From the NCBI GenBank assembly GCA_027490985.1, contig JAIXXC010000175.1:1-48839 (forward strand): a stretch of 48,839 nt of DNA, given 5' to 3'. Origin of the DNA: Verrucomicrobiales bacterium (GTDB taxonomy: Bacteria; Verrucomicrobiota; Verrucomicrobiia; Limisphaerales; UBA9464). How positions within the stretch are numbered: the first letter of the stretch is position 1; each line of letters starts with the position of its first letter. Positions 16,328-32,457 of the stretch are shown piece by piece. A program made the position numbers and the translations under genes. The notes under the pieces were generated by a model. That model worked only from the letters and a program-made list of their open reading frames with translations. It made no database searches and was not told where the DNA came from.

Positions 16328-17464
16328 ATGCCTCAGCAAGTGCTCAAAGGCGGTGGTTACGATGTCATCGTGATTGGGGGTGGCATCATGGGGATCGCTC
16401 TGGCGACCGTGGAATCGGAGCGGGGGCGACGGGTCCTCCTGCTGGAGCGGGAGGAGCGTCCGGTGGGGGCTTCGGTGCAGAATTTCGGATTGCTGTGGTG
16501 CCTGGGTCAGCCGGCCCACCTGTGGAAGCGGGCGCTCCGCACGCGGGCCCGCTGGTTGGCGTTGGCGGGCAAGGCGGGATTCCAAGCCGCAGCCAATGGG
16601 TCCATCCATCTGGCCCATGGCGATCTGGATGCGGGCGTGCTCAAGGAATTCGTCGAGACCGCGCCCGAGGGCTTCGAGGGGCACTGGCTGGAGGCGGGCG
16701 AAATCCCGGCCCGCTGCACGGCGGTGCGCCGTGATGGCCTGGTCGGCGGATTGTGGAGTCCGCACGAGACGACGGTCGATGGCCGCGAGGCCCTGCCGCG
16801 CCTGCTGGAATGGCTCCAGCGCGAGCGGGGCGTCGACGTCCGTTTCGATGCCGCGGTCTCCCGGGTCGAGGCGCCCGAAGTGGTGTCGGCCGCGGGCATC
16901 TTCCGGGCCGATCGGATCCACGTGTGCACCGGCACCGAATTGCGGATCCTCTTTCCGGAGGTCTACCGGGCCTCCGGCATCACCAAGACCAAATTGCAGA
17001 TGTGGCGCACGCATCGGCAACCCGGGGGCTGGCGTCTGGGCCCATCGCTCTGCGCCGGCCTGACCTACCTGCACTATGCCGCGTTTGCCGGCTGCCCCTC
17101 GCTGCCCGCGTTGCGGGCCCGGTACGAGCAGACCCACGCCGAACACCTGGCCCATGGCATCCACGTGCTGCTGGCTCAAAACGCCCTCGGCGAGGCCATC
17201 GTCGGCGACACGCACCACTATTCGCTGACCCACGATCCGTTCTTGCACGACGACCTCGACCGACTCATCGCCGACTACCTCGGCACCTTCGCCAGTGTGC
17301 CCGATCCCCGGGTGGCTCAGCGCTGGGTGGGGATGTACGCCAAGATCCCGGGCAAGACCGACCTCATCGCCCACCCTCAGCCGGGGGTCACGATCGTCAA
17401 CGCCCTCGGGGGCGCAGGCATGACCCTTTCGTTCGGACTGGCCGAGGAATTGGTGCCGGAGTGA
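16328..17464 (+). CDS. TIGR03364-type FAD-dependent oxidoreductase (phosphonate-associated)
   Basis: A 378-residue flavoprotein of the DAO (glycine oxidase-like) family. The FAD-binding fold begins YDVIVIGGGIMGIALAT with the GxGxxG loop at about 17-22 and the acidic end of strand two at LLEREE. The block GASVQNFGLLWCLGQP is characteristic of TIGR03364, proteins found next to phosphonatase-like hydrolases and phosphonate transporters. The C-terminal FAD contact is NALGGAGMTLSFGLAEE. The proposed family role is oxidative deamination of an aminophosphonate, which is not experimentally settled to my knowledge. It precedes a DUF5690 permease on the same strand by 143 bp. No phosphonatase gene (PhnX or TIGR03351) is visible nearby. 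Confidence 0.85.
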   Translation: MPQQVLKGGGYDVIVIGGGIMGIALATVESERGRRVLLLEREERPVGASVQNFGLLWCLGQPAHLWKRALRTRARWLALAGKAGFQAAANGSIHLAHGDLDAGVLKEFVETAPEGFEGHWLEAGEIPARCTAVRRDGLVGGLWSPHETTVDGREALPRLLEWLQRERGVDVRFDAAVSRVEAPEVVSAAGIFRADRIHVCTGTELRILFPEVYRASGITKTKLQMWRTHRQPGGWRLGPSLCAGLTYLHYAAFAGCPSLPALRARYEQTHAEHLAHGIHVLLAQNALGEAIVGDTHHYSLTHDPFLHDDLDRLIADYLGTFASVPDPRVAQRWVGMYAKIPGKTDLIAHPQPGVTIVNALGGAGMTLSFGLAEELVPE

Positions 17465-17607
17465 GCGCTGCCGGGCGTGTGTGCCCGGGTGACGGCCTCT
17501 GCGAAGTTTGACCTGCCTGAAACAATCCCGGGCGTCTTTGTGTTGCCAATGGGGCCGGGTTCGGGGCTTCTGGCGGTGCTGATGTTGCACTCCACCTCCA
17601 CCCCCGG

Positions 17608-18891
17608 ATGAAACCCACCGGCTCTTCAGGTCTCCAGCGGCGTCTCGCGGCCGATCCCGCGCTCTTCACCTGCGTTGCCTCATTGGCCGCGTTCGGGGCC
17701 TACACGGCGATGTACGCCTTCCGAAAACCGTTCTCCGCGGCCACCTACTCCGGCCAGGAGATCGGGGGCGTGTCGCTCAAGGTGCTTCTCGTGGTGGCCC
17801 AGTTGCTCGGGTACACGCTGTCCAAATTCCTGGGGATCAAGGTGGTCAGCGAAGCCGGGGCCGGGCGGCGGATCGCGCTCATCGCCGGATTGATCGGCCT
17901 GGCCTTCCTGCCGCTGGTGCTGCTGCCCCAGGTGCCCCGCTGGGGACAGGTGGCCTGCCTCTTCGTCAACGGCCTGCCGCTGGGGATGATCTGGGGCCTG
18001 ATCTTCGGATTCCTGGAGGGCCGCAAGGTGACGGAATTCCTCGGTCTGGGGATGAGCGTGAGTTTCATCTTCGCCTCGGGTTGGACCAAATCCGTGGGGG
18101 TCTACCTCATGAAGGCTTGGGGGGTGCCCGAGCTGTGGATGCCCGCCGTGACGGGGTTGGTGTTCTTGCCCTTGCTGGGCGTGTGTCTGGCGCTGTTGGC
18201 CTCATTGCCGGCTCCGAGTGCGGCGGATGTCTCCGAACGCTCGGCCCGCTCGCCCATGGATGCCGCCCAGCGCCGCCGATTCTTGGTCCGCAATGCGGTG
18301 CCCCTGATCTTCCTGATCCTCCCCTACGTGTTCCTCACGGTGTATCGCGATCTCCGCGACACCTTCATGGCCGATGTCCTGAAGGAACTGGGCGTGCGCC
18401 CCGATCCCTCGTTTTTTGCCCGGATTGAATCCTTGGTTGGCCTGGGAGTCCTGGGCGCGCTGGCGGGGTTGTGGTGGATCCGCGACCACTGGAAAGCCTT
18501 GGGGACCTACCATGTCCTCATCAGCGCCGGGGCGATTCTGGTGGGGGCGTCGACGTGGGCCTTCCAGCAGGGATGGCTCGGGCCAGCCGCCTGGATGGTG
18601 CTCACCGGGTTGGGCGGGTATCTGGGCTATGTGCCCTTCAACAGTGTGCTCTTCGATCGCTTGTTGGCCGCGACACGACAGGCCGGAACCGCCGCCTTCC
18701 TCATCCAGGTGGCCGACTCGGTGGGGTATCTGGCCTCGGCCTCGCTCTATCTCCAGCGGACTTTTTCCAAGGCCACGCCGGCCTGGACCCAGTTGACCCA
18801 AACGGGAGGTCTGGGGCTTGCGGTCTTGGTTCCGATACTCCTGTCCGCCTCGTGGCTTTCTCTGACGGCGTCGCGGCGTGTCAATCGCTGA
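17608..18891 (+). CDS. DUF5690 family / MFS-like membrane permease, second copy
   Basis: A 427-residue membrane protein with about 12 hydrophobic segments, paralogous to the gene at 480. Shared blocks are FGAYTAMYAFRKPFSAATY, GYTLSKFLGIKVVSE, LFVNGLPLGMIWGLIFGFLEGR and the central loop RSARSPMD. It lies downstream of the TIGR03364-type oxidoreductase, an arrangement seen for DUF5690 genes elsewhere, which suggests the pair imports and oxidises the same compound. The paralogue is paired with an alcohol dehydrogenase instead. The substrate remains unknown. The start is the ATG at 17608. The 143-bp gap before it holds no obvious terminator, so co-transcription is possible. Confidence 0.8.
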   Translation: MKPTGSSGLQRRLAADPALFTCVASLAAFGAYTAMYAFRKPFSAATYSGQEIGGVSLKVLLVVAQLLGYTLSKFLGIKVVSEAGAGRRIALIAGLIGLAFLPLVLLPQVPRWGQVACLFVNGLPLGMIWGLIFGFLEGRKVTEFLGLGMSVSFIFASGWTKSVGVYLMKAWGVPELWMPAVTGLVFLPLLGVCLALLASLPAPSAADVSERSARSPMDAAQRRRFLVRNAVPLIFLILPYVFLTVYRDLRDTFMADVLKELGVRPDPSFFARIESLVGLGVLGALAGLWWIRDHWKALGTYHVLISAGAILVGASTWAFQQGWLGPAAWMVLTGLGGYLGYVPFNSVLFDRLLAATRQAGTAAFLIQVADSVGYLASASLYLQRTFSKATPAWTQLTQTGGLGLAVLVPILLSASWLSLTASRRVNR

Positions 18892-18976
18892 TGTGGACTC
18901 AATTGTTACAAATGAATGTCGTTCGCCACGGGAAATTTGCTCGCGCTACTGAAGGCTGCGCTAATATGACGGCCTG

Positions 18977-19798
<822 letters not shown>

Positions 19799-19833: not shown

Positions 19834-20151
19834 ATGAAGATCTCAATTCTTTCCATTCTTGCCCTCCTGCTGGCATTGGGTTGTGAGCCCAAGCCGGAAG
19901 TCTCCGCCCCCAAAGACAGTTCCGCGGAAGCCAAGGCCTTGACCGATGCGGCCTCCAAGGCCGCCGCCGAGAACCCAGCCGATGCCTTGGCCCTCGCCGA
20001 AAGCATCAAGAACCGCGATGACATCTCGGCCGCCGATCGGGCGGCTGCCCTCAAAGCCCAACAGGATGCCCTCAAAAAGCTCTCCGATGCCGCCGCCAGT
20101 GGCGACTCCAAGGCGCAGAGTGCCATCGATAAGTATCGCGCCTCCAAGTGA
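19834..20151 (+). CDS. Small predicted lipoprotein
   Basis: A 105-residue protein with a lipoprotein signal: a short hydrophobic helix (ISILSILALLLALGC) ending in the lipobox LALGC, so Cys17 should be lipidated. The mature part is a charged, Ala-rich helical region (AADRAAALKAQQDALKKL) ending GDSKAQSAIDKYRASK. No known domain is recognised. Its last 26 codons have a diverged copy at 24092-24166, fused in frame to a copy of the start of uvrA. That shows this gene lay at one end of a tandem duplication. It is 28 bp upstream of the first LamG gene and probably shares its transcript. Confidence 0.75.
   Translation: MKISILSILALLLALGCEPKPEVSAPKDSSAEAKALTDAASKAAAENPADALALAESIKNRDDISAADRAAALKAQQDALKKLSDAAASGDSKAQSAIDKYRASK
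20071..20148 (+). repeat. Lipoprotein 3' segment, parent of the copy at 24092-24166
   Basis: These 26 codons (LKKLS...GDSKAQSAIDKYRASK) recur as 25 codons at 24092-24166 (FKKLA...GDAKAQSAIDKYRASQ). In the GD-to-end part six of the differing codons are synonymous and two change the residue. The 5' end, CTCAAAAAGCTCTCC, resembles CTCAAGAATCTCTCG near the start of uvrA (26399-26413), which may have served as the recombination point. Confidence 0.8.
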
Positions 20152-20179: not shown

Positions 20180-23100
20180 ATGAACTACATCCGAAGAACC
20201 TCCCTGGCCGCCGCTCTGGCGCTGGCCTCGGGCATGACGTCGACGGCGGTGCATGCCGCCCTCAAAGACGGCCTGGTCGCGCACCTGGCCTTCGACGGCA
20301 ACGCCACCGACGCTTCGACCAAGGCCAACAACGGCACTGCCGTTGGCGAGCCCACCTACGCAGCCGGCCGGCTCGGCCAAGCCGTCTTCTGCAGCAATGC
20401 CAAGGACGGCTCCTTTGCCAACTTCATCACCCTCGGCACCGCGCCCGACGTGCTCTTCGGCGACGCCACCGACTTCTCGGTGGCCATGTGGGTGCAACTC
20501 AATGCTTTCAGCGGCGACGCGGCCCTCTTCGGCAACAAGAGCTGGAACAGCGGCGGCAACCTGGGCTTCGTGCTGGCCACCGACAATGACCGACGCGTGC
20601 AGTGGAACTACAAGGAGGAAGCCACCCCGCGTCAGGACTTCGACAGCCCGGGCGGCCAGTTCCTCGAGGGCAAGTGGGTCCACGTGGCCATGACCGTCAA
20701 GCGCGACGGCAAGATCACCACCTACATCAATGGCCAATTGCTCAATGCCAAGGATGCCCGGCCGGCCGGTGCCGCCCCGAGCACCATCGACACCGACGCC
20801 GCCGGCCTGGCGATGAACATCGGCAATGACGGCACCGGTGCCTACACCGACGGCGGCAGCGTCAGCCATGGCAACACGGGCATCGACGACTTCGGCCTCT
20901 GGCGCCGCGAGCTCTCCGCCTCGGAGGTGTCCCGCATCTACACCTCGGGCCTCGAGGGGGTGAGCCTCACCAAGATCGTCGAGCCGACCATCGCCGCGAT
21001 CGGCACCCAGTCGCCCGCGCCGAACGCGCTGAATGTCGCCCCGCTGGCCCCTGTCGAGGTGGTCATCAACCACCAGGCCACCGCGGTCAACCCGGCCTCG
21101 GTCAAGCTGACCTTCAATGGTGCGGCCGCGACCCCGAAGGTGGTGAGCACCACCACCAACACGGTCGTGACGCTGGCCCGGACCAACCTGTTGGCCCCGA
21201 ACTCGACCAACTCCTACGAGATCACCTTCTCGGACAACGCGACCCCGCCGAACACGACCACCTCCAAGGTGACCTTCGTGGTGGCCAACTACCCGTCGCT
21301 CACGCTCCCGACGCCGATCTGGCTCGAGACCTTCGAGTCCACCGCCGAGGGCAACACCCCGGCCGGATGGACCCTGAGCAACCTGTCGACGGGCGGATCG
21401 GGCACCTTCGACCTCGATGACCCGAACAGCGACGCCTACATGGACTGGGTGCTGATCAGCAAGGACCGTGTCCAGTCGGTCGGGGCCGCCGGCAAATGGG
21501 AGGCCGCTCGCCGTTTGAATGTCTCCGAGGCCTATGTCAATGGGGCCAAGGTCACCGACTTGGCGGTCGGCAAGTTCCTGTACGCCGAGTCCGACGTCCG
21601 CGGTGGCAACCAGATCCAGTATGCCTTCTCGCCCGACGTCGACCTGACCGGCAAGAAGGACATCTTCCTGTCGTTCCACAGCATCTACGAGCAGAACCAG
21701 GACAGCATCGGCTCGGTGGAGTACTCCATCGATCAGGGTGCGACTTGGTTGCCGATCGTGTACATGATCGATGGGCCCGACATCAAAAAGGACGCCAACG
21801 GCAACGTGGATCCCGTGGCCACCCTGACCGATGTCAATGGTGACGCCGCCGGCTACGAGGACCCCATCACCGGCGAGTCCCTCGGAAAGAACTACGGTGC
21901 CTTCATCGGCGTGGCCAAGTCCGAGTGGGCCAACCTCGCGCCCTTCATCCAGGCCCGCATCAACGACGACCCCGTCGAGTCCAAGCGCGTCGAGCTCTTC
22001 CGCCTGCCCAAGGCCGACAACCAGTCCAAGGTCCGCCTGCGCTTCGCCCAGGCCGGAACCGGCAGCTGGTACTTCGGCATCGACAACGTGGGATTCTATT
22101 CCATCACCCAGGTGGCCCCGCCGCAGTTCACGGCCCAGCCGGGCGCAGCGACGATCGTCGTCGGCCAGAACGGCCGCCTCACCGCCGCGGTGACCGGAGC
22201 GGGCGTGAGCCTGCAATGGCGCCTGAACGGCAATCCGATCGTGGGTGCGACCAACGCCACCTTGACCCTGTCGGCGGTCACCGCCGCCCAGGGGGGCACC
22301 TACACGCTGGTGGCCACCAACGCCGGCGGCAGCGTCACGAGCGATGCGGTCGTCGTCACGGTGCCCGAGGCCCTCAAGGACTTGTCGTCGATCCGCTCCG
22401 GGCTCCTGGCCTATCTGCCCTTCGATGGCAATGCCTCCGACCTCTCGGGTCGTGGCAACAACGGCACGCCGGTCGGTGCTCCGACCTTCGCGGCCGGCAA
22501 GGTGGGCTCCGGCGCCCTGGCCTTCAGCAGCGCCAAGGATGGATCGTCCTTCAACTACGTGACCCTCGGCACGAACCTGGTGACCGGCACCAACAGCTTC
22601 TCGGTGGCCTTCTGGGCCAAGCTCGACGCTTGGACGGGTGATCCGTCCTTCATCGGCAACAAGGACTGGAACAGCGGCGGCAACGTCGGCTGGGTGGCCG
22701 CCACGGCTGGTGACGGTCGCATCCAGTGGAACTTCCGCTCCAAGGGTGATCCGCAGCCGGCCCGTCGCGACTACGACAGCCCGGGCGGCTACTTCAACGG
22801 GGCCGTCTGGCGCCACATCGTGGTGACCTTCGACGTCAACGGGAAGGCTTCGACCTACGTCAACGGCGACCTCGTCGACTCCCGCGATGTCGGCCCGGTG
22901 GCCGGCGGTCCCGACTCCGGCCTGCCCATCAATATCGGTCAGGACGGCAAGGGCACCTACACCGACGGCAACAGCGTCTCCGGCCAGGGCCTGATCGACG
23001 AAGTCGCCCTCTGGGGTCGCGTGATCTCGCCGCTGGAGGCCGCCTCGCTCTATCAGGGCGGCAATTCGGGCAACGCGCTGGTCGTCCCGGCGGTCGTCAC

Positions 23101-23938
23101 CGGCCAGTGGGACTTCAACGGCAACCTCGACGCCACCGTCGGTACGGCTCTGCAGTACTTCGGTGACACGGCCTCCATCACGGCCTTCCAGGATGCGACC
23201 ATCGGCGGCAGTCCGGCCAAGGTGATGTCCTTCGGGGCTGCGACCAAGGCCCAGGGTTACCTCATGACCCACGGGGCTGGCGCCAACGGCGGCGGCACCA
23301 AGGTCAACCAGTACACCCTGATCATGGACGTGATGTTCCCGACGGCCAGCGACGCCAAGTGGCGCGGGCTGTTCCAAGTCGACCCGTCCAATGCCAGCGA
23401 CGGCGAGCTGTTCGTCAACAAGGCCAACGGCATCGGCATCAGCGGGCAGTATCAGGGCAAGGTCGTCGCCAACACCTGGCACCGCCTGGCCTTCGCCTTC
23501 AACCTCAACGACAAGTCGGTGTCCAAGTACATCGACGGCGTGCTGGTCAACAAGCAGACCCTCGGTGAGGGCTTCGATGGCCGCTGGGCCCTGGGGTCCA
23601 CCGCGCTGCTCTTCACCGATGAGGACGGCGAGACCGCCGCAGGCCTCGTCAACAGCGTCCAGATCCGCAACGGTACCCTCAGCGACGCCGAGGTCGCTGC
23701 ACTGGGCGGTGCCACGGCCGACGGCATCCCGGGTGCGGTGTCTTCGGGCATCAAGATCAGCGGGATCAGCGCCAGCGGTGCCAACGTGGTCATCACCTGG
23801 GCCGGTGGCGCCGGCATCAAGCTCCAGACCTCGGCCACCCTCGGTGGCGCCTGGAGCGACGTGACGGGTTCCGACGGTGCCAGCACCGCGACCATCCCGG
23901 CCGCCAATGCCGCGGCGTTCTTCCGCCTCGTGAAGTGA
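20180..23938 (+). CDS. Very large secreted LamG-domain protein (LamG-A)
   Basis: A 1252-residue secreted protein with a signal peptide ending TSTAVHA. Domains in order: LamG-like (concanavalin-A-like) at about 27-260 (LVAHLAFDGNATD, then FSVAMWVQLNAFSG, GIDDFGLWRREL); an Ig-like linker at about 265-375; a beta domain beginning WLETFESTAEGNTPAGW at about 380-640; an Ig domain at about 649-730 (LQWRLNGNPIVG); a second LamG at about 735-965 (LLAYLPFDGNASD); a third, more distant LamG-like module at about 971-1180 (TGQWDFNGNLDATVG); and the shared C-terminal module from about 1189 (ISGISASG...FFRLVK). LamG domains usually bind glycans or proteins, so a surface adhesive or polysaccharide-binding role is inferred. 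It is paralogous to the gene at 24291. Confidence 0.85.
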   Translation: MNYIRRTSLAAALALASGMTSTAVHAALKDGLVAHLAFDGNATDASTKANNGTAVGEPTYAAGRLGQAVFCSNAKDGSFANFITLGTAPDVLFGDATDFSVAMWVQLNAFSGDAALFGNKSWNSGGNLGFVLATDNDRRVQWNYKEEATPRQDFDSPGGQFLEGKWVHVAMTVKRDGKITTYINGQLLNAKDARPAGAAPSTIDTDAAGLAMNIGNDGTGAYTDGGSVSHGNTGIDDFGLWRRELSASEVSRIYTSGLEGVSLTKIVEPTIAAIGTQSPAPNALNVAPLAPVEVVINHQATAVNPASVKLTFNGAAATPKVVSTTTNTVVTLARTNLLAPNSTNSYEITFSDNATPPNTTTSKVTFVVANYPSLTLPTPIWLETFESTAEGNTPAGWTLSNLSTGGSGTFDLDDPNSDAYMDWVLISKDRVQSVGAAGKWEAARRLNVSEAYVNGAKVTDLAVGKFLYAESDVRGGNQIQYAFSPDVDLTGKKDIFLSFHSIYEQNQDSIGSVEYSIDQGATWLPIVYMIDGPDIKKDANGNVDPVATLTDVNGDAAGYEDPITGESLGKNYGAFIGVAKSEWANLAPFIQARINDDPVESKRVELFRLPKADNQSKVRLRFAQAGTGSWYFGIDNVGFYSITQVAPPQFTAQPGAATIVVGQNGRLTAAVTGAGVSLQWRLNGNPIVGATNATLTLSAVTAAQGGTYTLVATNAGGSVTSDAVVVTVPEALKDLSSIRSGLLAYLPFDGNASDLSGRGNNGTPVGAPTFAAGKVGSGALAFSSAKDGSSFNYVTLGTNLVTGTNSFSVAFWAKLDAWTGDPSFIGNKDWNSGGNVGWVAATAGDGRIQWNFRSKGDPQPARRDYDSPGGYFNGAVWRHIVVTFDVNGKASTYVNGDLVDSRDVGPVAGGPDSGLPINIGQDGKGTYTDGNSVSGQGLIDEVALWGRVISPLEAASLYQGGNSGNALVVPAVVTGQWDFNGNLDATVGTALQYFGDTASITAFQDATIGGSPAKVMSFGAATKAQGYLMTHGAGANGGGTKVNQYTLIMDVMFPTASDAKWRGLFQVDPSNASDGELFVNKANGIGISGQYQGKVVANTWHRLAFAFNLNDKSVSKYIDGVLVNKQTLGEGFDGRWALGSTALLFTDEDGETAAGLVNSVQIRNGTLSDAEVAALGGATADGIPGAVSSGIKISGISASGANVVITWAGGAGIKLQTSATLGGAWSDVTGSDGASTATIPAANAAAFFRLVK

Positions 23939-24103
23939 TGGGCTGAGGCTTCGGCCTCACTCGAGCAGGGGGCCGGTCGCAAGACCGGCCCCTTTTTTCA
24001 TATCCACGGGTTTCCCCGGCGGCGTTCCGGCGGTAGCTTGAGGCGCATGCCCAAGGAATTTCTCCGTGTCGTCCGGGCGCGGCAGCACGGCTTCAAGAAG
24101 CTC
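23750..24103 (+). repeat. Direct repeat, copy A (LamG 3' end, terminator and uvrA start)
   Basis: Aligns over its full length with 26058-26410 with a single 1-base length difference in the terminator T-run. It covers the C-terminal module of LamG-A, the stop, both hairpins, the spacer and the first 19 codons of a uvrA-like start. Confidence 0.85.
23945..23998 (+). terminator. Double-hairpin terminator after LamG-A
   Basis: Two hairpins in a row. The first has arms GAGGC and GCCTC around a TTCG tetraloop. The second has arms GGGGCCGGTC and GACCGGCCCC around a GCAA tetraloop and is followed by six Ts. A near-identical structure follows LamG-B. Confidence 0.9.
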
Positions 24104-24196
24104 GCCGCCGACGCCACGGGCGATGCCAAGGCACAGAGTGCCATTGATAAATATCGGGCTTCCCAGTGGTGGGTTTTCAAGGGATGGGCTCCCTAG
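24047..24196 (+). pseudogene. In-frame chimeric micro-ORF: uvrA start fused to lipoprotein end
   Basis: A 49-codon open frame. Residues 1-19 read MPKEFLRVVRARQHGFKKL against Uvr[20 protein letters not shown]. The following residues (GDAKAQSAIDKYRAS) match the end of the lipoprotein at 19834. It then runs through about ten unrelated residues (QWWVFKGWAP) to a TAG. It lies directly after the LamG-A terminator and 94 bases before the LamG-B start. The simplest explanation is the junction of an old tandem duplication whose unit ran from the lipoprotein 3' end through LamG to the uvrA 5' end. Whether the peptide is made is unknown; several synonymous changes in the lipoprotein part allow for past coding constraint. 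Confidence 0.75.
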
Positions 24197-24290
24197 TGGT
24201 AGGCGGGGACCTTCTGGCCTTCTTGACCCATTTCGTTCGCTCCGACCAGAAACCCTGTCGGTTAGCAACCGAACACATTCCGTAGCAATC

Positions 24291-26246
24291 ATGAGTGCAC
24301 AGTACCCCAAACGTCTCGCCTTGGCCGCCCTGCTGGGGGGCTTCGGTCTTCAGGCTCAAGTCACCATCCCGGCGGAGTTCGCCGACCCGTTGAGCGCAGC
24401 CTCGGCCGCCAACCGTGGATTCTCTGTCTGGATGCCGCGGGCCGCGACCGCCGCTGGCTATGAGGACCCCATCAGCGGTGAACCTCGCGGCAATACCTGC
24501 GGTGTCTTCATTGGCGTGGCCACCCACGAGCGGAAGAACACCGCTCCCTTCATCAGCGCCCGTGTGAAAGACGATGCGGTGAAGTCCCAGCGTGTGGAAT
24601 TGCTCAACCCGCCCCTGGCCGATCCGTCCGTGCTGAGCAACGGTCTGATGGCCTACCTGCCCTTCGACGGCGACTACACCGACTTGCAGGGCAACGTGTC
24701 CGCCAAGGCGGTCGGTTCCCCGACCTTCGAGGCCGGCAAGCGCGGTCAGGGTATCCACGTGAAGAATCTCAAGGACGGTTCGCTCAACCACTACGTGACC
24801 CTCGGCTATCCCAGTGCCCTCAAGTTCGGTGAGGCCAAGGACTTCACCGTGTCGTTCTGGGTGAAGCAGATCAGTCAGGTCGGCGACCAGGCCTTCATCT
24901 CCAACAAGGACTGGAACAGCGCCAACAACCGCGGTTGGGGCGTCTTTTCCCAGGGTGGTGCGGTGACCCGCGTCCAGTTGACCGGACCGTCCGGTTCGGT
25001 CGACAAGTTCAGCAATAACCCTCTGGCCAACCTGCCCGATGGCGCGTGGCACCTGATCACCGTGTCCGTGGCCCGTGCCGGAAACGTGGACACCTACGTG
25101 GACGGTGCTCTGGCGCTCTCCAGCCCGATGACCGTCAAGGGCAACATCGATACCGATGACCTCGGCTTTGCGTTGAACCTCGGTCAGGACGGCACCGGCA
25201 AGTACACCGACGGTGGCGCTGCCGAACTCGACGCCGTGCTCGACGAAGTTGCCGTCTGGAACCGCGCCCTCAACGCTCAGGAAGCCTCGGCGCTCTTCAC
25301 CCTCGGCAACGCGGGTCAGAGCATCAAGGTGCCGGCGATCACCCAGAACCTGGAGGTCTACCTGCCGTTCGACGGCACCTACGCCGACCAGTCGGGCAAG
25401 GGTGTGGTCGCCTCGGCGGTGGGTTCGCCCAAGTTCGAGGCCGGCCCGATCGGCCAGGCCATCCGCGTGAACAACCTGAAGGACGGCTCGGTCAACAACT
25501 ACGTGACCCTCGGTTACCCGAGCGGCCTGAAGTTCGGTGACACCGGCAGCTTCACCGTGTCCTTCTGGACCAAGCTCAACAGCCAAGCCGACGACCAGGC
25601 CTTCATCTCCAACAAGGACTGGAACAGCTCCAACAACCGCGGCTGGGGTGTCTTCTCCCAGGGTGGCGGCAAGGTGCGCAATCAGTTCACCGGTCCGGGC
25701 GCTGGCGCCGACAAGTACAGCCAGACTCCGGCCCTGGGCCTGAACGACACCCAGTGGCATCAGGTCACCGTCATCGCCGACCGCGCTGCCGGCAAGTCTG
25801 AGACCTACCTGGACGGCAGTCTGGTCCAGTCGGCCGCTCTGGCCACCAAGGGCTCGTTCGACACCGACGACCTCGGGTTCGCCATCAACATCGGTCAGGA
25901 CGGCACCGGCAAGTACACCGACGGTGGCGCTGCCGAGATCGACGCCGTGATCGACGAACTGGCCATCTGGAGCCGTCCTCTGGCCGGCGTCGAAGTCGCC
26001 GGTCTCTATGCCAAGGCCCTCACCGGCGCTGGCATCGTGGGCGCGGCCCCGACGGCCATCAAGATCAGCGGCATCACCGCCGCTGGTGGCCATGTCACCA
26101 TCACCTGGGCCGGCGGCGCCGGCATCAAGCTCCAGAGCGCGGCCACCCTCGGTGGCGCCTGGACCGACGTAGAAGGTTCGGCCGGTGCCAGCACCGCGAC
26201 CATCCCGGCCGCCAATGCTGCGGCGTTCTTCCGCCTCGTGAAGTAA
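24291..26246 (+). CDS. Secreted LamG-domain protein (LamG-B), duplicate of LamG-A
   Basis: A 651-residue secreted protein. The signal peptide is LALAALLGGFGLQAQ. Residues about 54-107 (AAGYEDPISGE...VKSQRVELL) correspond to a piece from the middle of LamG-A (about 556-608), here cut off from its domain, so the N-terminal region looks like a deletion product. Two LamG modules follow at about 115-335 and 350-575. They are very similar to each other: both contain FTVSFW, then DQAFISNKDWNS, NNRGWGVFSQGG, and GQDGTGKYTDGGAAE. The C-terminal module (about 585-651) is nearly identical to that of LamG-A. The ATG at 24291 gives the signal peptide at the N-terminus; the frame is open upstream to 24066. 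Adhesion or glycan binding is inferred. Confidence 0.85.
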   Translation: MSAQYPKRLALAALLGGFGLQAQVTIPAEFADPLSAASAANRGFSVWMPRAATAAGYEDPISGEPRGNTCGVFIGVATHERKNTAPFISARVKDDAVKSQRVELLNPPLADPSVLSNGLMAYLPFDGDYTDLQGNVSAKAVGSPTFEAGKRGQGIHVKNLKDGSLNHYVTLGYPSALKFGEAKDFTVSFWVKQISQVGDQAFISNKDWNSANNRGWGVFSQGGAVTRVQLTGPSGSVDKFSNNPLANLPDGAWHLITVSVARAGNVDTYVDGALALSSPMTVKGNIDTDDLGFALNLGQDGTGKYTDGGAAELDAVLDEVAVWNRALNAQEASALFTLGNAGQSIKVPAITQNLEVYLPFDGTYADQSGKGVVASAVGSPKFEAGPIGQAIRVNNLKDGSVNNYVTLGYPSGLKFGDTGSFTVSFWTKLNSQADDQAFISNKDWNSSNNRGWGVFSQGGGKVRNQFTGPGAGADKYSQTPALGLNDTQWHQVTVIADRAAGKSETYLDGSLVQSAALATKGSFDTDDLGFAINIGQDGTGKYTDGGAAEIDAVIDELAIWSRPLAGVEVAGLYAKALTGAGIVGAAPTAIKISGITAAGGHVTITWAGGAGIKLQSAATLGGAWTDVEGSAGASTATIPAANAAAFFRLVK

Positions 26247-26410
26247 TGGGCTGAGGCTTCGGCCTCGCTCGAGCAGGGGGCCGGTCGCAAGACCGGCCCC
26301 TTTTTCATATCCACGGGTTTCCCCGGCGGCGTTCCGGCGGTAGGATGGTGTCCATGTCGAAGGAGTTCATCCGTGTCGTCGGGGCGCGGCAGCACAACCT
26401 CAAGAATCTC
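26058..26410 (+). repeat. Direct repeat, copy B (LamG 3' end, terminator and uvrA start)
   Basis: Partner of 23750-24103. The terminator and downstream spacer are almost unchanged between copies. The spacer from the end of the terminator hairpin to the ATG differs mainly in the last dozen bases before the start codon. Confidence 0.85.
26254..26305 (+). terminator. Double-hairpin terminator after LamG-B
   Basis: Same tandem arrangement as after LamG-A: a TTCG-capped stem (GAGGC/GCCTC), then a GCAA-capped stem with 10-bp arms, followed by five Ts. It separates LamG-B from uvrA. Confidence 0.9.
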
Positions 26411-29281
26411 TCGCTCGAGATCCCGCGCGATCGATTGGTGGTCATCACCGGGCCCAGCGGTTCGGGGAAATCCTCGCTGGCCTTCGACACCTTGTTTGCG
26501 GAGGGACAACGCAAGTACGTCGAGAGCCTCTCGGCCTACGCGCGGCAGTTCCTCGACCAGATGCAAAAGCCCGAGGTGGACCACATCGAGGGGTTGTCTC
26601 CGGCCATCGCCATCGAGCAGCGCACCAGCGGAGCCAATCCGCGCTCGACCATCGCGACCACCACCGAGATTTACGATTACCTGCGGCTTCTCTACGCGCA
26701 CTTGGGTCAGCCCCATGATCCCGAGACCGGCACGCCCATGGCCTGCCAGTCGGCCACCGAAATCGTCGACCGCATCGCGCTGTTGCCGACGAAAACGCGA
26801 CTCATGGTGCTGGCCCCGGTGGTCGAAGATCAGCGCGGGGAATTCCGTGATGTGCTGGAGCGCCTGCAGCGTGAGGGGTTTGTCCGGGTTCGCGTCGATG
26901 GTCACGTCCAGGAGCTGAATCCGAAGGAACCCATCCGGCTGGATCCGAAGGCCAATCACACCCTCGAAGTGGTGGTGGACCGCATTGTCATCGCCGAGGG
27001 CGTCCGGGTGCGTCTGGCCGATTCGGTGGAGACGGCGCTGCGTTGGGGGGAAGGGCGCCTCAAGGTGCTGCATCAGGCTCCGGACCGACCGAAGGATCCG
27101 TGGATCGAAACCCTGCACTCCACGCGCATGTATTCACCGGCCACGGGGCGTTCGTTCGACACGCCCACCCCGCAGCACTTCTCCTTCAATTCACCCAAAG
27201 GCGCCTGCCCGGTGTGCCATGGGTTGGGGCAGAAGATGGTTTTCGATCCCTCGCTCATCGTGCCCGACGAAACCAAGACGCTGGAAGACGGAGCCGTGCA
27301 GCCGTACCGGCGCATGGGGGGCAAGAAGATGGTGAGCTACTACAAGGGGCTCATCAAAGGCGTCGCCCAGCACTGCGGTGCGCCCTTGGATCGGCCGTGG
27401 AAGGAGTTGTCAGAGGAGGCCCGACGCACGCTGATGCATGGCTCCGGGACCGACGAGGTGGAGTTCTGGTTCATGTCGGGCGGGGCGCCCAAGAAGACGC
27501 GCAAACCCTTCGAGGGGGTTCTACCCAACCTCGAACGCCTCTATGCCGACAGCGAGAGCGAGTTCACCCGCAATCGGCTGAAGGCCTACATGACGCTGCA
27601 TCCGTGCGATGTCTGCCGCGGTCGTCGGCTTCGGCCGGAGATGCTGGCCATCACGCTCGGATCCGAGGTGATCTCCGGCTCGCGGGTCCCGGGTCGGAGC
27701 ATCGCCGATTTCTGTTCGCTCTCCATTGCCGAGGCCCATGTGTTTCTGGGTGGGCTTGCCTTGAGCGATCTCCAACGCCGGATCGCCGGCGAGGTGATCC
27801 TCGAAATTCGCAAGCGCCTCGGATTCATGGTCGAGGTGGGATTGGGTTATCTCACCCTCGACCGGGAGAGCGGCTCGCTGAGTGGTGGCGAGGCCCAGCG
27901 CATCCGCTTGGCCACGCAGATCGGTGCCGGGTTGGTCGGTGTGCTCTACATCCTCGACGAGCCGAGCATCGGGTTGCATCAGCGCGACAATGACCGGTTG
28001 CTCGAGACGGTCCGTCGCCTGCGCGATGCCGGCAATTCGGTCATCGTGGTGGAGCATGACGAAGACACCATTCGCGCGGCCGATCATGTTTTGGACATGG
28101 GGCCCGGGGCCGGAATTCATGGTGGGGAACTGGTGGCCCAGGGCGCACCGGCCGAGATCATGGCCAACACCCGCTCTGTGACTGGACGCTACTTGTCGGG
28201 CGACTTGTGCATCCCGGTGCCGCGTCATCGGGTGGATCCGCGCGACGACAAGGGTTGGATTGAAATCATCGGGGCCACCGAGAACAACCTGCGCAACGTC
28301 GACGCCCGCATCCCGTTGGGAACGCTCACGTGCGTGACCGGTGTCAGTGGCAGCGGCAAGTCCACGCTCATCGATGACATCCTTCGGCGCACCGTCTTCC
28401 GCCAGTGGTACGGATCCAAGGAGCGCCCGGGTGCGCATCGCGAGATCCGCAATTTGGAACTCCTCGAGAAGTGCATCGTCATTGATCAGGCGGCCATCGG
28501 TCGAACCCCGAGGTCCAACCCGGCGACCTACACCGGGATGTTCAATGAGATCCGCGATCTCTTCGCCTCGGTGGCCACCGCTCGGGTGCGGGGCTACGAC
28601 GCGGGGCGATTCAGCTTCAATGTCAAAGGCGGGCGCTGCGAGAAGTGCGAAGGTGATGGCGTGCTCAAGATCGAGATGCACTTCCTGCCGCCGGTGTACG
28701 TCACCTGCGAGGCCTGTGCCGGCAAGCGCTACAATCGCGAGACGTTGGAGATCACCTACAAGGGCCTGAACATCGCCGATGTGCTTCAACTGACGGTCGA
28801 TGAGGCGGTGAATTTTTTCAGGGCAGTCCCCAAGCTGCATGCACCGAGTCTGACACTGGCGGAGGTGGGCCTGGGTTATTTGCGCTTGGGTCAATCCGCC
28901 ACAACGCTCTCCGGGGGCGAGGCTCAGCGACTCAAGCTGGCGGCCGAATTGTCCCGACGTCAGACCGGCCGTGTTCTGTATCTCCTCGATGAACCGACGA
29001 CCGGTTTGCACTTTCAGGACATCGCCAAATTGCTGGAAGTGCTCTTCAAGCTGCGCGACGGCGGCAACACGCTGGTGGTCATCGAACACAATCTCGACGT
29101 GATCAAGACGGCCGACTGGGTCATCGACCTCGGTCCCGAGGGCGGGTCCGGTGGCGGTCGGATCATCGCGCAGGGCACACCCGAAACCGTGGCCGCCACG
29201 CCGGGCAGCCATACGGGCCGGTACCTCACCCGCGTGCTGCGTCAGAAACCCTCGCCACCCTCCCGGTCGAACCGAGGTTGA
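26354..29281 (+). CDS. uvrA: UvrABC system protein A
   Basis: Damage-recognition ATPase of nucleotide excision repair, 975 residues, a normal length. Both ABC ATPase halves are complete: Walker A GPSGSGKS (about 33-40) and GVSGSGKS (about 662), and signature LSGGEAQR twice (about 508 and 851). Two zinc modules are seen, CPVC...CDVC in the first half and CEKC...CEAC in the second. The C-terminal end is ordinary. The ATG at 26354 is preferred to 26345 because the duplicated copy at 24047 begins at the equivalent position and the bases before it are not conserved. It lies 49 bp after the LamG-B terminator. The following DHPS-like and TrmO genes may belong to the same transcript. Confidence 0.97.
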
Positions 29282-29311
29282 CGTCGCTCAGAGTCCGCCC
29301 ACGTTGCCCCC

Positions 29312-30199
29312 ATGCTCCGTCTCGAGGATCTCGCTGAACTGGCCGTCCGCCATGCCGATGCCCTGCCGTCCCGCGTGGCGGCCTTCGACCTCGGCGGCCG
29401 TCGCTTCGATGGCAATGTCCGCAGCGAATTGATGGGGGTCATCAACTTGTCGGCCGACTCCTGGTATCGCGAGAGCGTGGTGCTCACGGCCGAGGCGGCC
29501 ATCCGGCGCGGCCGGGTGCTGGCGGCCCAGGGTGCTGCGATCTTGGATATCGGGGCCGAGTCCACGCTGGCCCATGCGGCCCGAGTCGATGACGCCGCTC
29601 AGACCTCGCAGTTGTTGCCTGTGGTTCGAACGTTGGCCGGTGAAGGCCATGTCGTCTCGGTGGAGACGTATCATCCGTCAGTGACCCGGGCCTGCCTGGA
29701 GGCGGGAGCCAAGGTACTCAACCTCACGGGCAACGATCGCAGCGATGAGTTGTTCCGCATGGTGGCCGATCACGATGCGGCGGTGGTCTTGTGCCATGTG
29801 CAGGGAGCCAATGTCCGCGAGGTGGGCGAGTTCAACCTCGAGGGCGATCCGGCGGAGCATTTGTACGATCATTTCGCCCGGCAGACCGAAGTGGCCCTGA
29901 AGAACGGGGTGACTCGCCTGTGGATCGATCCGGGTCTGGGCTTCTATTACAAGAATCTGGGCGACTCGAAGACGCGCATCCGGCACCAGATGCGGGTGTT
30001 CCTCAACACCTTCCGGTTGCGGGCGCTCGGGTTTCCCACCTGCCACGCCTTGCCCCATGCCTTCGAGTGCTTCGAAGACGAGGTGCGTTCGGCCGAGCCG
30101 TTCTTCGCCGTGATGGCCGCACTGGGAAAGACCGACCTCCTGCGGACCCACGAGATCCCCAAGACGCGCGCCGTGCTCGAGACCCTCGGGGTCTGGTGA
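29312..30199 (+). CDS. Divergent dihydropteroate synthase-like (pterin-binding) protein
   Basis: A 295-residue TIM-barrel protein of the pterin-binding family. Recognisable DHPS features are GVINLSADSW (family GVINxTPDSF), DIGAEST (family DIGGEST), the metal/pterin region IDPGLGF, and RTHEIPKT at the C-terminal end. The loop that in true DHPS contains the Ser-Arg-Lys sequence is replaced by FPTCHALPHAFECF, and the Asn-Asp of the fourth strand reads NLTGN. The missing lysine loop argues against folate synthesis as the main job; a related pterin- or corrinoid-type methyl transfer role, or a different substrate, is possible. It sits 30 bp after uvrA and 4 bp before trmO. Function is therefore open. 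Confidence 0.7.
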   Translation: MLRLEDLAELAVRHADALPSRVAAFDLGGRRFDGNVRSELMGVINLSADSWYRESVVLTAEAAIRRGRVLAAQGAAILDIGAESTLAHAARVDDAAQTSQLLPVVRTLAGEGHVVSVETYHPSVTRACLEAGAKVLNLTGNDRSDELFRMVADHDAAVVLCHVQGANVREVGEFNLEGDPAEHLYDHFARQTEVALKNGVTRLWIDPGLGFYYKNLGDSKTRIRHQMRVFLNTFRLRALGFPTCHALPHAFECFEDEVRSAEPFFAVMAALGKTDLLRTHEIPKTRAVLETLGVW

Positions 30200-30203
30200 G
30201 CGG

Positions 30204-31133
30204 GTGCAGGGAGGCCGTGGGTGGGCCGAGTCCATCGGGACCGTTGCCTCGGCCTCCGGTTCCGGTCCACGCTCGGGCCGCTTGGAATCGTCCCTGACCA
30301 TCCGCCCCATCGGCTTCCTGCGATCCGGGAAGGGGGTGCGTTTCAAGACGCTGCACCAGCCGGATGAAGCCGCCTCGGAGACGAATGTGCTGGAGCTGAC
30401 CCCGGCTCCGGGCCTCCGTGAGGCGCTTCGGGATCTGGAGGGCATGGAGCGCCTTTGGCTGATCTGGTGGTTCCACCGCGCCGAGTCGTGGCGCCCCTTG
30501 GTCTTGCCGCCCCGGGGCCCGGCGCAGCGGCGCGGCGTCTTCGCGACGCGTTCCCCGCATCGGCCCAATCCCATCGGGATGACACCAGCCCGCCTGCTGG
30601 GTGTCGAAGGGCTGAGATTGCTGCTGGGTCCGTGCGATTTGTTGGAGGGCACGCCGATTTTGGACATCAAGCCCTATGTCCCGGCGTATGACGCGTTCCC
30701 GGATTCGGCGGCCGGCTGGATCGACACGGTCGAGGCGCTGCAAGCGCGGCCACCGCAGTATTCGGTGACCTGGGGGCCACTGGCCCGCGAACAGGGCGAG
30801 TGGCTGAGGTCGGCGTGGTCGGTGGATTTTCAGCAACGCTTGGAGGAGATCTTGGGGCGCGATCCCCGGCCGCATCGTACCCGGCGCATCCGACGCCTCC
30901 CTGAAGGTGGGTTCGAGATCGGATGCGGGAGTTGGCGGGCGGAGTTTCGGGTGGAGGGAGCCTCGGTCGAGGTACTCCGCCTCAAGCCGTCGTTTCCCGT
31001 CCGGTTTCTGCTGGAGGCGTGGCGGGAAGCTGTCCCGGATCGCGAGGCGCAGTCGGCCTTTCTCGAACGCTGGCCCTGTCCGGAGTTGGCGCTGCGCGAG
31101 GGATCGCCTCCGACCGACACCCGGCCCCACTGA
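30204..31133 (+). CDS. trmO: tRNA (N6-threonylcarbamoyladenosine37-N6)-methyltransferase TrmO
   Basis: A TsaA/TrmO family protein that methylates t6A at position 37 of certain tRNAs using S-adenosylmethionine. Visible blocks are IRPIGFLRS at the N-terminus, [12 protein letters not shown]-type sequence, the family hallmark [17 protein letters not shown], and [14 protein letters not shown]-terminal domain of about 130 residues follows, as in the longer family members. No ATG is present near the start; GTG at 30204 gives 309 residues, while TTG at 30282 would begin just before the conserved IRPIGF and is equally plausible. The gap to the DHPS-like gene is only 4 bp, so co-translation is likely. 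Confidence 0.88.
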
Positions 31134-31239
31134 CGGTGCCGCGGTCGCCGAAGGGGTTTTCCAGTTCGCCCACTCTCGTGGATTTTTTCTTTGTGTGTCG
31201 GTTGGCTTTTCGCCAGAACAGAAGTTCTTTGATCCGGCC

Positions 31240-32457
31240 ATGGCCTTGATTGTCCAAAAATTCGGCGGAACTTCCGTCGGCAACACCGAGCGCATCCAGA
31301 ATGTCGCCCGACGCGTCGCCCAGTACCGGGCGAAGGGCGACCAGGTGGTCGTCGTGGTCTCCGCGATGAGCGGGGTCACCGACAAGCTCATCGGGTTGGC
31401 CAAGGAAATCACCCCGCTGCCCGACGAACGCGAAATGGACATGCTCCTGGCCACCGGCGAGCAGCAGACCATCGCCCTGGCGGCCATCGCCCTCCAGGCC
31501 CAGGGCCAGAAGGCCGTGTCTTTCACCGGGGCCCAGGCGGGTATCGTGACCGACGGCACCCACACCAAGGCCCGCATCCAGAACATCACGCCCGACGAGG
31601 TCCACAAGGCGCTCGACGAAGGGAATGTGGTGATCGTGGCCGGTTTCCAGGGCCGCACCCGCGACGGTGACATCACCACCCTGGGTCGCGGTGGCTCCGA
31701 CCTCTCGGCCATCGCTCTGGCCGCCGCGCTCAAGGCCGACCTTTGCCAGATTTATACGGATGTCGACGGCGTCTACACCGCCGACCCGCGGCTCGTGCCT
31801 GCGGCGCGCAAGATTCCCGAGATCTCCTACGACGAGATGCTCGAGATGGCCGGCGCCGGCTCCAAGGTCATGCAGCTGCGCTCGGTCGAGTTCGCCAAGA
31901 AGTTCAACGTCGTCTTCGAAGTCCGTTCCAGTCTCAACGACAATCCCGGTACCATCGTGAAAGAAGAAACCTCCAGCATGGAGGACGTCGTCGTCCGCGG
32001 CGTCTCGCTCGACAAGAATCAGGCCAAGGTCACCGTCTGGGGCCTGCCCGACCAGCCCGGCCGCGCGGCCCGCATCTTCAACGCCCTGTCCGAGGCCGCC
32101 ATCAACGTGGACATGATCGTCCAGAACGCGAGCCATGCGGGCGGCAATCCGGCGACCGACCTGACCTTCACGGTCGACAAGCCCGATCTCACCAAGGCCG
32201 GCAAGGTTCTGGAGAGCCTCCGCACCGAGCTGGGCTTCCGCGAGGTGTCCACCGATGAGAGCATCGGCAAGGTGTCCATCGTGGGTGTGGGCATGCGCAG
32301 CCACAGCGGTGTGGCGGCCCGGATGTTCACCGTGCTCGCGGCCGAGGGAGTCAACATCGGCCTGATTTCCACCAGCGAGATCAAGATCAGCGTGGTGATC
32401 GATCTGGCCAGTGGCGAGAAGGCGATGCGGGCCTTGCACAAGGCCTTCCTCGAATAA
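31240..32457 (+). CDS. lysC: Aspartate kinase
   Basis: First step of the aspartate pathway to lysine, threonine, methionine and diaminopimelate. A 405-residue single-function kinase. The N-terminal kinase motif is [11 protein letters not shown]; the catalytic region has [18 protein letters not shown] and [13 protein letters not shown]. Two ACT domains at the C-terminus (from about 265 and 345) carry allosteric binding; [12 protein letters not shown] is the typical end. The length suits the class with an internal start for a regulatory subunit, but I cannot tell whether one is used. The ATG at 31240 is chosen because it precedes the conserved N-terminus; the open frame extends back to 30907 overlapping trmO. 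No leader peptide or riboswitch is evident in the 106-bp gap before it. Confidence 0.95.

What the first reader, a model, noticed from the sequence alone, without database searches (positions are those of the whole stretch)
24047..24196. Scar of a tandem duplication: an in-frame uvrA-start/lipoprotein-end micro-ORF
Directly visible: 19 codons resembling the start of UvrA (MPKEFLRVVRARQHGFKKL) continue in frame into a copy of the lipoprotein C-terminus (GDAKAQSAIDKYRAS). In the flanks, the real lipoprotein end lies before LamG-A and the real uvrA start lies after LamG-B. The geometry fits one tandem duplication of [lipoprotein 3' end - LamG - uvrA 5' end]. The junction falls where the two parent genes share a similar 15-mer in the same frame (CTCAAAAAGCTCTCC at 20071, CTCAAGAATCTCTCG at 26399), pointing to short-homology recombination. 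In the lipoprotein part synonymous changes outnumber replacements, so the 49-residue peptide may have been under coding constraint.
Basis: partly seen in the sequence, partly recalled or inferred. Interest (0 to 1): 0.8.

Follow-up and report, generated by a model that had tools for sequence, protein, structure and literature searches.

The report
Recombination scar between two LamG genes
A short stretch of bacterial DNA marks where recombination left two unlike versions of a secreted-protein gene side by side, joining the start of a DNA-repair gene to the end of a lipoprotein gene; it is most likely a leftover junction rather than a working mini-gene.

Summary
24047-24196 is 49 codons: a copy of the uvrA start (with the terminator upstream, 90%, E 2.6e-76) running in frame into a copy of the lipoprotein end (80%, E 2e-14). 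The join lies at the best of 10,404 in-frame 15-mer pairs between the parents (12/15). Relatives have one LamG gene beside the lipoprotein gene: type A in G007, G010, G012, G016; type B, with the window's LamG-B spacer, in G011, G017, G005. LamG-A and LamG-B as sisters is rejected (p 5e-7). So the window holds A and B alleles in tandem; LamG-B has internal deletions. Direct A x B joining, self-duplication with later replacement, and an old tandem lost elsewhere all stay possible. Coding constraint is neither shown nor excluded: silent excess on the scar side is borderline (7-8 of 16, p 0.02-0.13), and the lipoprotein stop and one codon are lost. The scar keeps the probable uvrA promoter behind a terminator, so it may drive LamG-B (inferred). 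Scar found in 0 of 18 congeners.

The parts
19834..20151 (+). lipoprotein gene (105 aa), open; parent type of the 3' half of the scar
   Evidence: no Pfam family above its cut-off
20180..23938 (+). LamG-A, 1252 aa protein with Laminin_G_3 and Ig domains; type A allele
   Evidence: Pfam; 93% aa to the genes of G007 and G010 in the same slot
23875..24036 (+). tract nearly identical to 26184-26344 (157 of 161; 142-143 of 162 to G003); holds the LamG-A 3' end, terminator and uvrA promoter copy
   Evidence: left edge set by eye, the scoring gives 23791-24036 (246 columns, 14 mismatches)
23967..23994 (+). intrinsic-terminator-like site after LamG-A (12-pair stem, T run)
24034..24046 (+). copied uvrA -10-like element TAGCTT (24034-24039) plus 7-nt gap to the ATG; a weak -35-like TTTCCC lies at 24011-24016
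   Evidence: TANNNT 7 nt before ATG; the -35 was read by eye, the consensus scan found no promoter
24047..24196 (+). chimeric micro-ORF (49 codons + stop): uvrA-start half to about 24098, lipoprotein-end half to 24166, the former lipoprotein stop now TGG (24167-24169), then 8 codons of former spacer
24092..24103 (+). junction zone, at the short match shared by uvrA (26399) and lipoprotein (20071)
24197..24290 (+). B-type spacer between lipoprotein remnant and LamG-B; 24210-24310 is 79% to G005, G011, G017
24291..26246 (+). LamG-B, 651 aa; type B allele with two internal deletions relative to the 1240-aa gene of G011
24447..24458 (+). site of the first (about 1.4 kb) internal deletion in LamG-B, at a short ACCGCCGCC repeat in the G011 gene
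26275..26302 (+). terminator-like site after LamG-B
26354..29281 (+). intact uvrA; start aligned at 26354 with the relatives (-10-like TAGGAT 26341-26346)

Best explanation
24047-24196 is the decayed junction of an illegitimate recombination that put two divergent alleles of one LamG protein gene in tandem. In this genus a single LamG gene lies beside the lipoprotein gene and before uvrA in the relatives where the slot can be read; some species carry allele A, others allele B. In the window lineage the uvrA start that ended an A unit was joined, at a short match, to the lipoprotein tail that began a B unit, giving lipoprotein - LamG-A - uvrA' | 'lipoprotein - LamG-B - uvrA. Shown: both halves, the short match, single A and single B arrangements in relatives, non-sister LamG genes, and near-identity of the two 3' ends. 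Inferred: that A and B chromosomes recombined directly (one end homologous, one end illegitimate); that the micro-ORF is not a selected peptide; and that the copied, probably leaderless uvrA promoter now helps transcribe LamG-B, which lies behind a terminator.
For: Both halves significant. 12/15 match at the join is the best of 10,404 in-frame pairs. Single type A in G007, G010, G012, G016 and type B in G011, G017, G005, B including the spacer and N-terminus of LamG-B. LamG-A + LamG-B as sisters rejected, lnL 822 lower, p 5e-7. A-B identity 42%, lower than A to the outgroup genes of G004/G013/G014 (54-55%). Scar changes modest: 9 of 51 nt in the uvrA half; 12 of 69 nt plus a lost codon in the lipoprotein half against the window's gene. 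Tract 157/161 identical between copies against 142-143/162 to G003. Promoter element at fixed spacing kept in the scar; terminator upstream.
Against: The scar's lipoprotein half shares QSA and a GAT codon with the window's own lipoprotein gene and not with the clade II (B-type) species or G007, so a B unit did not come from those species as they are now. Placing the scar's 67 uvrA sites on the uvrA tree is unresolved (deep attachments only 1.3-1.5 lnL worse). An older duplication giving rise to B before clades I and II split is not rejected (AU p 0.21; the program warns of long branches, and monophyly of A has support of only 66/81). A borderline excess of silent changes leaves room for a peptide. 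Only one genome shows the tandem, and reads could not be examined.
Confidence: 0.59

Rival explanations
1. Self-duplication as the first reader proposed (one unit lipoprotein 3' end - LamG-A - uvrA 5' end doubled), followed by replacement of the downstream LamG copy by a B allele through ordinary homologous recombination in the flanks.
For: The lipoprotein half of the scar shares QSA and GAT with the window's own lipoprotein gene and has the fewest differences from it (12 against 15-17 of 69 for G007, G011, G010). The 3' ends of the two copies look homogenised, so recombination here does happen.
Against: Needs two events. No genome with A - scar - A was seen (0 of 18 congeners have the scar; in several the slot is broken or unread). 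Outgroup G009 also has QSA with GAT, so it may be an ancestral state.
Confidence: 0.2
2. Old tandem: A and B stood side by side in the ancestor of clades I and II; clade II later lost A and G007 lost B by recombination between the direct repeats.
For: Where they overlap, LamG-B of the window is outside G011+G017 (48 sites join those two against 19 and 12 joining the window to one of them), as expected if B is as old as the clade split. Duplication before that split is not rejected.
Against: Needs at least two precise losses. No relative shows a remnant: 0 of 18 at E<=0.001, several with a broken or unread slot. The scar has not diverged more than neutral sites do between window and clade II (third positions 10 of 40, my count; uvrA 4-fold 0.34-0.37).
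Confidence: 0.14
3. The micro-ORF is a translated 49-aa peptide under coding constraint.
For: Frame is open, uvrA-type promoter element and ATG at fixed spacing are kept, and the one indel inside the ORF is 3 nt. Silent changes are more than the neutral 22-28%: lipoprotein half against own gene 6-7 of 12 (p 0.009-0.09); both halves against own genes 9-10 of 21 (p 0.01-0.10); scar side only 7-8 of 16 (p 0.02-0.13).
Against: uvrA half alone is near neutral: 4 silent, 5 replacement against G007 (p 0.12-0.20), while the real uvrA start has 1 silent and 1 replacement change between window and G007. The lipoprotein stop and one codon are lost. 21% of shuffled copies are stop-free over 48 codons. No Pfam family passes its cut-off. 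Found in one genome only.
Confidence: 0.07

Closest known systems
Homology-facilitated illegitimate recombination (HFIR)
   Same: One end joined by homology, the other by a short match; PMC3240628 (abstract and passages seen) gives 3-10 bp micro-homology at most junctions. Here a 12/15 match.
   Different: HFIR is defined experimentally, and its products generally show a deletion; here it is inferred from one draft genome and the result is a gain of a unit.
Successive displacement of T6SS effector modules giving arrays of immunity genes (Vibrio cholerae, PMC5361080, abstract and passages seen)
   Same: Alleles found in other strains lie in a row in one strain and are not each other's closest relatives; that paper proposes an HFIR-like mechanism and uses the same argument against self-duplication.
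   Different: No effector-immunity pair here; a LamG protein gene, and the joint is between two flanking genes.
Tandem duplication with promoter capture by illegitimate recombination (PMC11111574, abstract and passages seen)
   Same: A tandem join places a promoter from the far end of the unit before a gene of the next unit.
   Different: There selected in the laboratory; here expression is unknown.
[quoted passage not shown]
   Same: A -10 element a few bases before the start codon.
   Different: Other phylum; no transcript data here.

Membership tests
Tandem self-duplication | The two copies are each other's closest relatives | tested here: not met
   AU test p 5e-7 for the LamG genes; only the 3' end (about 160-250 nt) is closest to its partner, read as later homogenisation
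Tandem self-duplication | Junction joins the 3' end of the unit to its 5' end | tested here: met
   uvrA start followed by lipoprotein end
Homology-facilitated illegitimate recombination | Short match at the illegitimate joint | tested here: met
   12 of 15, best of 10,404 in-frame pairs
Homology-facilitated illegitimate recombination | Other end joined by homologous recombination with transferred DNA | tested here: inconclusive
   Homologous flanks exist. Upstream MFS and pilin are far from G003/G007 (4-fold 0.42-0.56) and uvrA, folP, lysC near (0.23-0.29), but downstream tsaA is far too (0.47-0.49); donor and crossover are not identified
Functional small ORF | Purifying selection on the peptide | tested here: inconclusive
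   21 changes against the window's own genes, one genome; silent excess borderline, stop and one codon lost
Leaderless promoter | TANNNT at fixed spacing before the start codon, conserved in orthologues | tested here: met
   12 of 15 genus uvrA starts located (4 further genus genomes not tried), 12 of 20 located of 28 tried in all, plus the scar; 1000 base shuffles of all 21: mean 1.1, maximum 5. The sequences are related, so not independent
Leaderless promoter | Transcript begins at the start codon | not testable with these tools
   needs RNA data

The most novel reading that the evidence does not exclude
The slot between the lipoprotein gene and uvrA is a hot spot where this genus trades divergent LamG alleles, and the scar is not only debris: it is a captured leaderless uvrA promoter with a chimeric leader peptide that puts a second LamG allele under DNA-repair-gene control.
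Probability: 0.12. Interest if true: 0.55.

Novelty: new member of a known kind. Interest (0 to 1): 0.33.

Why it matters
Here both parents of a joint that added a second allele beside a first are still readable, and each allele is still found alone in relatives. That makes the locus a natural test case for how this group of Verrucomicrobia swaps LamG protein genes, and for whether duplicated housekeeping promoters are reused by the neighbour. As a single locus in one draft genome it is of modest general interest.

Tried and rejected
Placing the scar's uvrA half (67 sites) on the uvrA tree: unresolved; many attachments in clades I and II within 1 lnL, deep ones 1.3-1.5 lnL worse. The tree that put LamG-B of the window as sister to G011 (96/92) is not trusted, because rows are partial: on the 482-nt stretch shared by three, 48 sites join G011 and G017 against 19 and 12. 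A table that mixed the two LamG repeats of G017 was not used for that species. Horizontal transfer of LamG-A was considered from its low 4-fold distance to G010 (0.23 against 0.43 in uvrA), but the G007-G010 distance is similarly low (0.26), so it is no evidence of recent transfer. A claim of different histories on the two sides of the slot was weakened on rechecking, because downstream tsaA does not fit.

Assembly artefact considered and put low: the longest exact repeat between the two units is 43 nt, and the joint carries changes not seen in the relatives aligned; reads could not be examined. Closest relative by uvrA, G003 (98%), cannot be judged: its contigs end on both sides of the slot. 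The consensus scan found no sigma-70 promoter in 23900-26420. Rfam gave no match at gathering score in three loci. Literature: leaderless promoters with Verrucomicrobia gave, as far as the listings show, nothing on Verrucomicrobia promoters; LamG with freshwater Verrucomicrobia gave 0 papers; two searches gave general papers seen in the listing only.

Full report
What is there. The window is contig C93 of a 349-contig genome, 90.5% complete, probably metagenome-assembled (inferred). The six named records with a relative of LamG-B are all titled as Verrucomicrobia MAGs, one naming Lac Pavin. The order on the + strand is MFS transporter, pilin-like gene, lipoprotein (19834-20151), LamG-A (20180-23938), terminator, the reported stretch (24047-24196), LamG-B (24291-26246), a second copy of the terminator, uvrA (26354-29281). 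'MFS', 'pilin' and 'lipoprotein' are my labels from reading the sequences; the lipoprotein has no Pfam family above its cut-off.

The observation. 23900-24103 matches 26208-26410 at 90.2% (E 2.6e-76), and 24093-24168 matches 20072-20150 at 79.7% (E 2e-14). So the duplicated part at the 3' side is not only the uvrA start: it includes the end of LamG, the terminator and the region up to uvrA. The join lies where the two parent genes share 12 of 15 bases in frame (20071, 26399), the best of 10,404 in-frame pairs.

The relatives. Eighteen congeners were searched with the scar region; it was found in 0 of 18 at E<=0.001. LamG DNA was searched in 14 of the 18; the rest were judged from fetched loci. 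Of the 18: four have type A (G007, G010, G012, G016); three have type B (G011, G017, G005); three have a more distant LamG gene in the same neighbourhood, some kilobases from uvrA (G004, G013, G014); in three the slot reads N; in five it was not seen or the contig breaks. Lipoprotein - LamG - uvrA on one contig is seen for A in G007, G010 and G012 and for B in G011; in the others the contig ends inside the slot. So the absence of the scar is informative for only part of the 18.

Two alleles, not one gene doubled. From the lipoprotein tail through the spacer and start of LamG-B, the window is colinear with G011, G017 and G005 (about 75% over 367 nt), then with the second half of the G011 gene (89% over 1858 nt); two internal stretches of the 1240-aa G011 protein are missing, the first at a short ACCGCCGCC repeat. 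LamG-A is 87-93% identical in protein to the A genes of G007, G010, G012 and G016, but 42% to the B gene of G011, while A is 54-55% to the outgroup genes. Holding LamG-A and LamG-B together as sisters costs 822 lnL (p 5e-7). A duplication in the common ancestor of clades I and II, with B evolving fast, is not rejected (p 0.21); all A genes as one side of a branch has support of only 66/81, and the program warns that long branches meet. Where the window, G011 and G017 overlap, the window's B is outside the other two (48 against 19 and 12 sites). Clades are from uvrA 4-fold distances: I = window, G003, G018, G007; II = G011, G017, G005, G001, G015.

Where the scar's halves come from. The ten bases before the scar's ATG and its proline codon look like G007 and G011 (CTTGAG..C.CATGCC), not like the window's or G003's own uvrA start (GATGGTGTCCATGTC). 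The lipoprotein half shares QSA and a GAT codon with the window's own gene and with outgroup G009, not with G007 or clade II. The pieces are too short to place on a tree. Thus direct recombination of an A and a B chromosome, self-duplication followed by replacement, and an old tandem with losses all remain; I weigh them about 0.59, 0.2 and 0.14.

Later homogenisation. Between 23875 and 24036 the two copies are 157/161 identical, while the copies are 142-143/162 to G003, 137-140 of 161-162 to G007 and G011, and 140-143 of 161-162 to G005. The best-scoring tract is 23791-24036 (246 columns, 14 mismatches; 0 of 20,000 permutations reach its score); its right edge is sharp (21 mismatches from 24037 to 24110), its left edge is not. 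I read this as gene conversion or a crossover in this tract after the tandem arose.

Does the micro-ORF do anything? uvrA half against G007: 4 silent and 5 replacement changes in 17 codons; the neutral share of silent changes is 22-27% (p 0.12-0.20). Lipoprotein half against the window's gene: 6.5 silent, 5.5 replacement (p 0.009-0.09). Against the four real genes compared (window, G007, G011, G010), codons private to the scar are two replacements (A to D, K to Q) and four silent or mixed, besides the lost stop and one lost codon. On the scar side alone 7-8 of 16 changes are silent (p 0.02-0.13). A shuffled sequence of the same make-up is stop-free in 21% of draws.

Possible effect. In 12 of 15 genus uvrA starts located, a TANNNT hexamer ends 6 or 7 bases before the ATG (7 in 11 of them), also in G008 and G009, whose upstream sequence is otherwise unlike. 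Four further genus genomes were not tried; 20 of 28 starts tried were located, and two of the non-genus ones (G033, G024) look wrongly located. Shuffles give a mean of 1.1 and a maximum of 5 of 21; the sequences are related, so this is not a count of independent cases. The scar keeps TAGCTT at 7 bases. Since LamG-A ends in a terminator-like hairpin, the copied promoter may supply transcription to LamG-B. This is inferred; the consensus scan found no promoter there, and the B-type spacer may hold its own.

Known kinds. The closest are homology-facilitated illegitimate recombination (PMC3240628), allele arrays built by displacement in Vibrio T6SS loci (PMC5361080), and tandem duplication with promoter capture (PMC11111574); of each I saw the abstract or part of it and passages. 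Nothing here needs a new kind of process.

Noticed in passing
L051 (G015) 83-256: A group II intron (Rfam RF02001, E 7e-17) begins just after a copy of the same terminator in relative G015; that some group II introns insert behind terminators is recalled, not looked up.
   Followed up: partly
L052 (G015) 3422-3709: A degraded second copy of the pilin-like gene lies upstream of uvrA in G015, beside a repeat also found at the end of the intron-bearing contig; this suggests another rearrangement at the same slot.
   Followed up: partly
16328-19798 against 26345-32457: Upstream genes (dao-like, MFS, pilin) place the window far from G003 and G007 (4-fold 0.42-0.58); uvrA, folP and lysC downstream are near (0.23-0.29), but tsaA downstream is far again (0.47-0.49), so the pattern is not clean (gene labels mine).
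   Followed up: partly
24066-26246: The LamG-B frame is open back through the scar (726 aa from a GTG), so automatic gene calls may start LamG-B inside the scar in another frame.
   Followed up: no
20180-26246: LamG-A and LamG-B also pass the Pfam cut-off for PF07953 (clostridial neurotoxin, N-terminal receptor binding; E 6e-8 and 1e-11), far weaker than Laminin_G_3 (E 4e-41 and 6e-37); probably a cross-hit between lectin-like folds.
   Followed up: no
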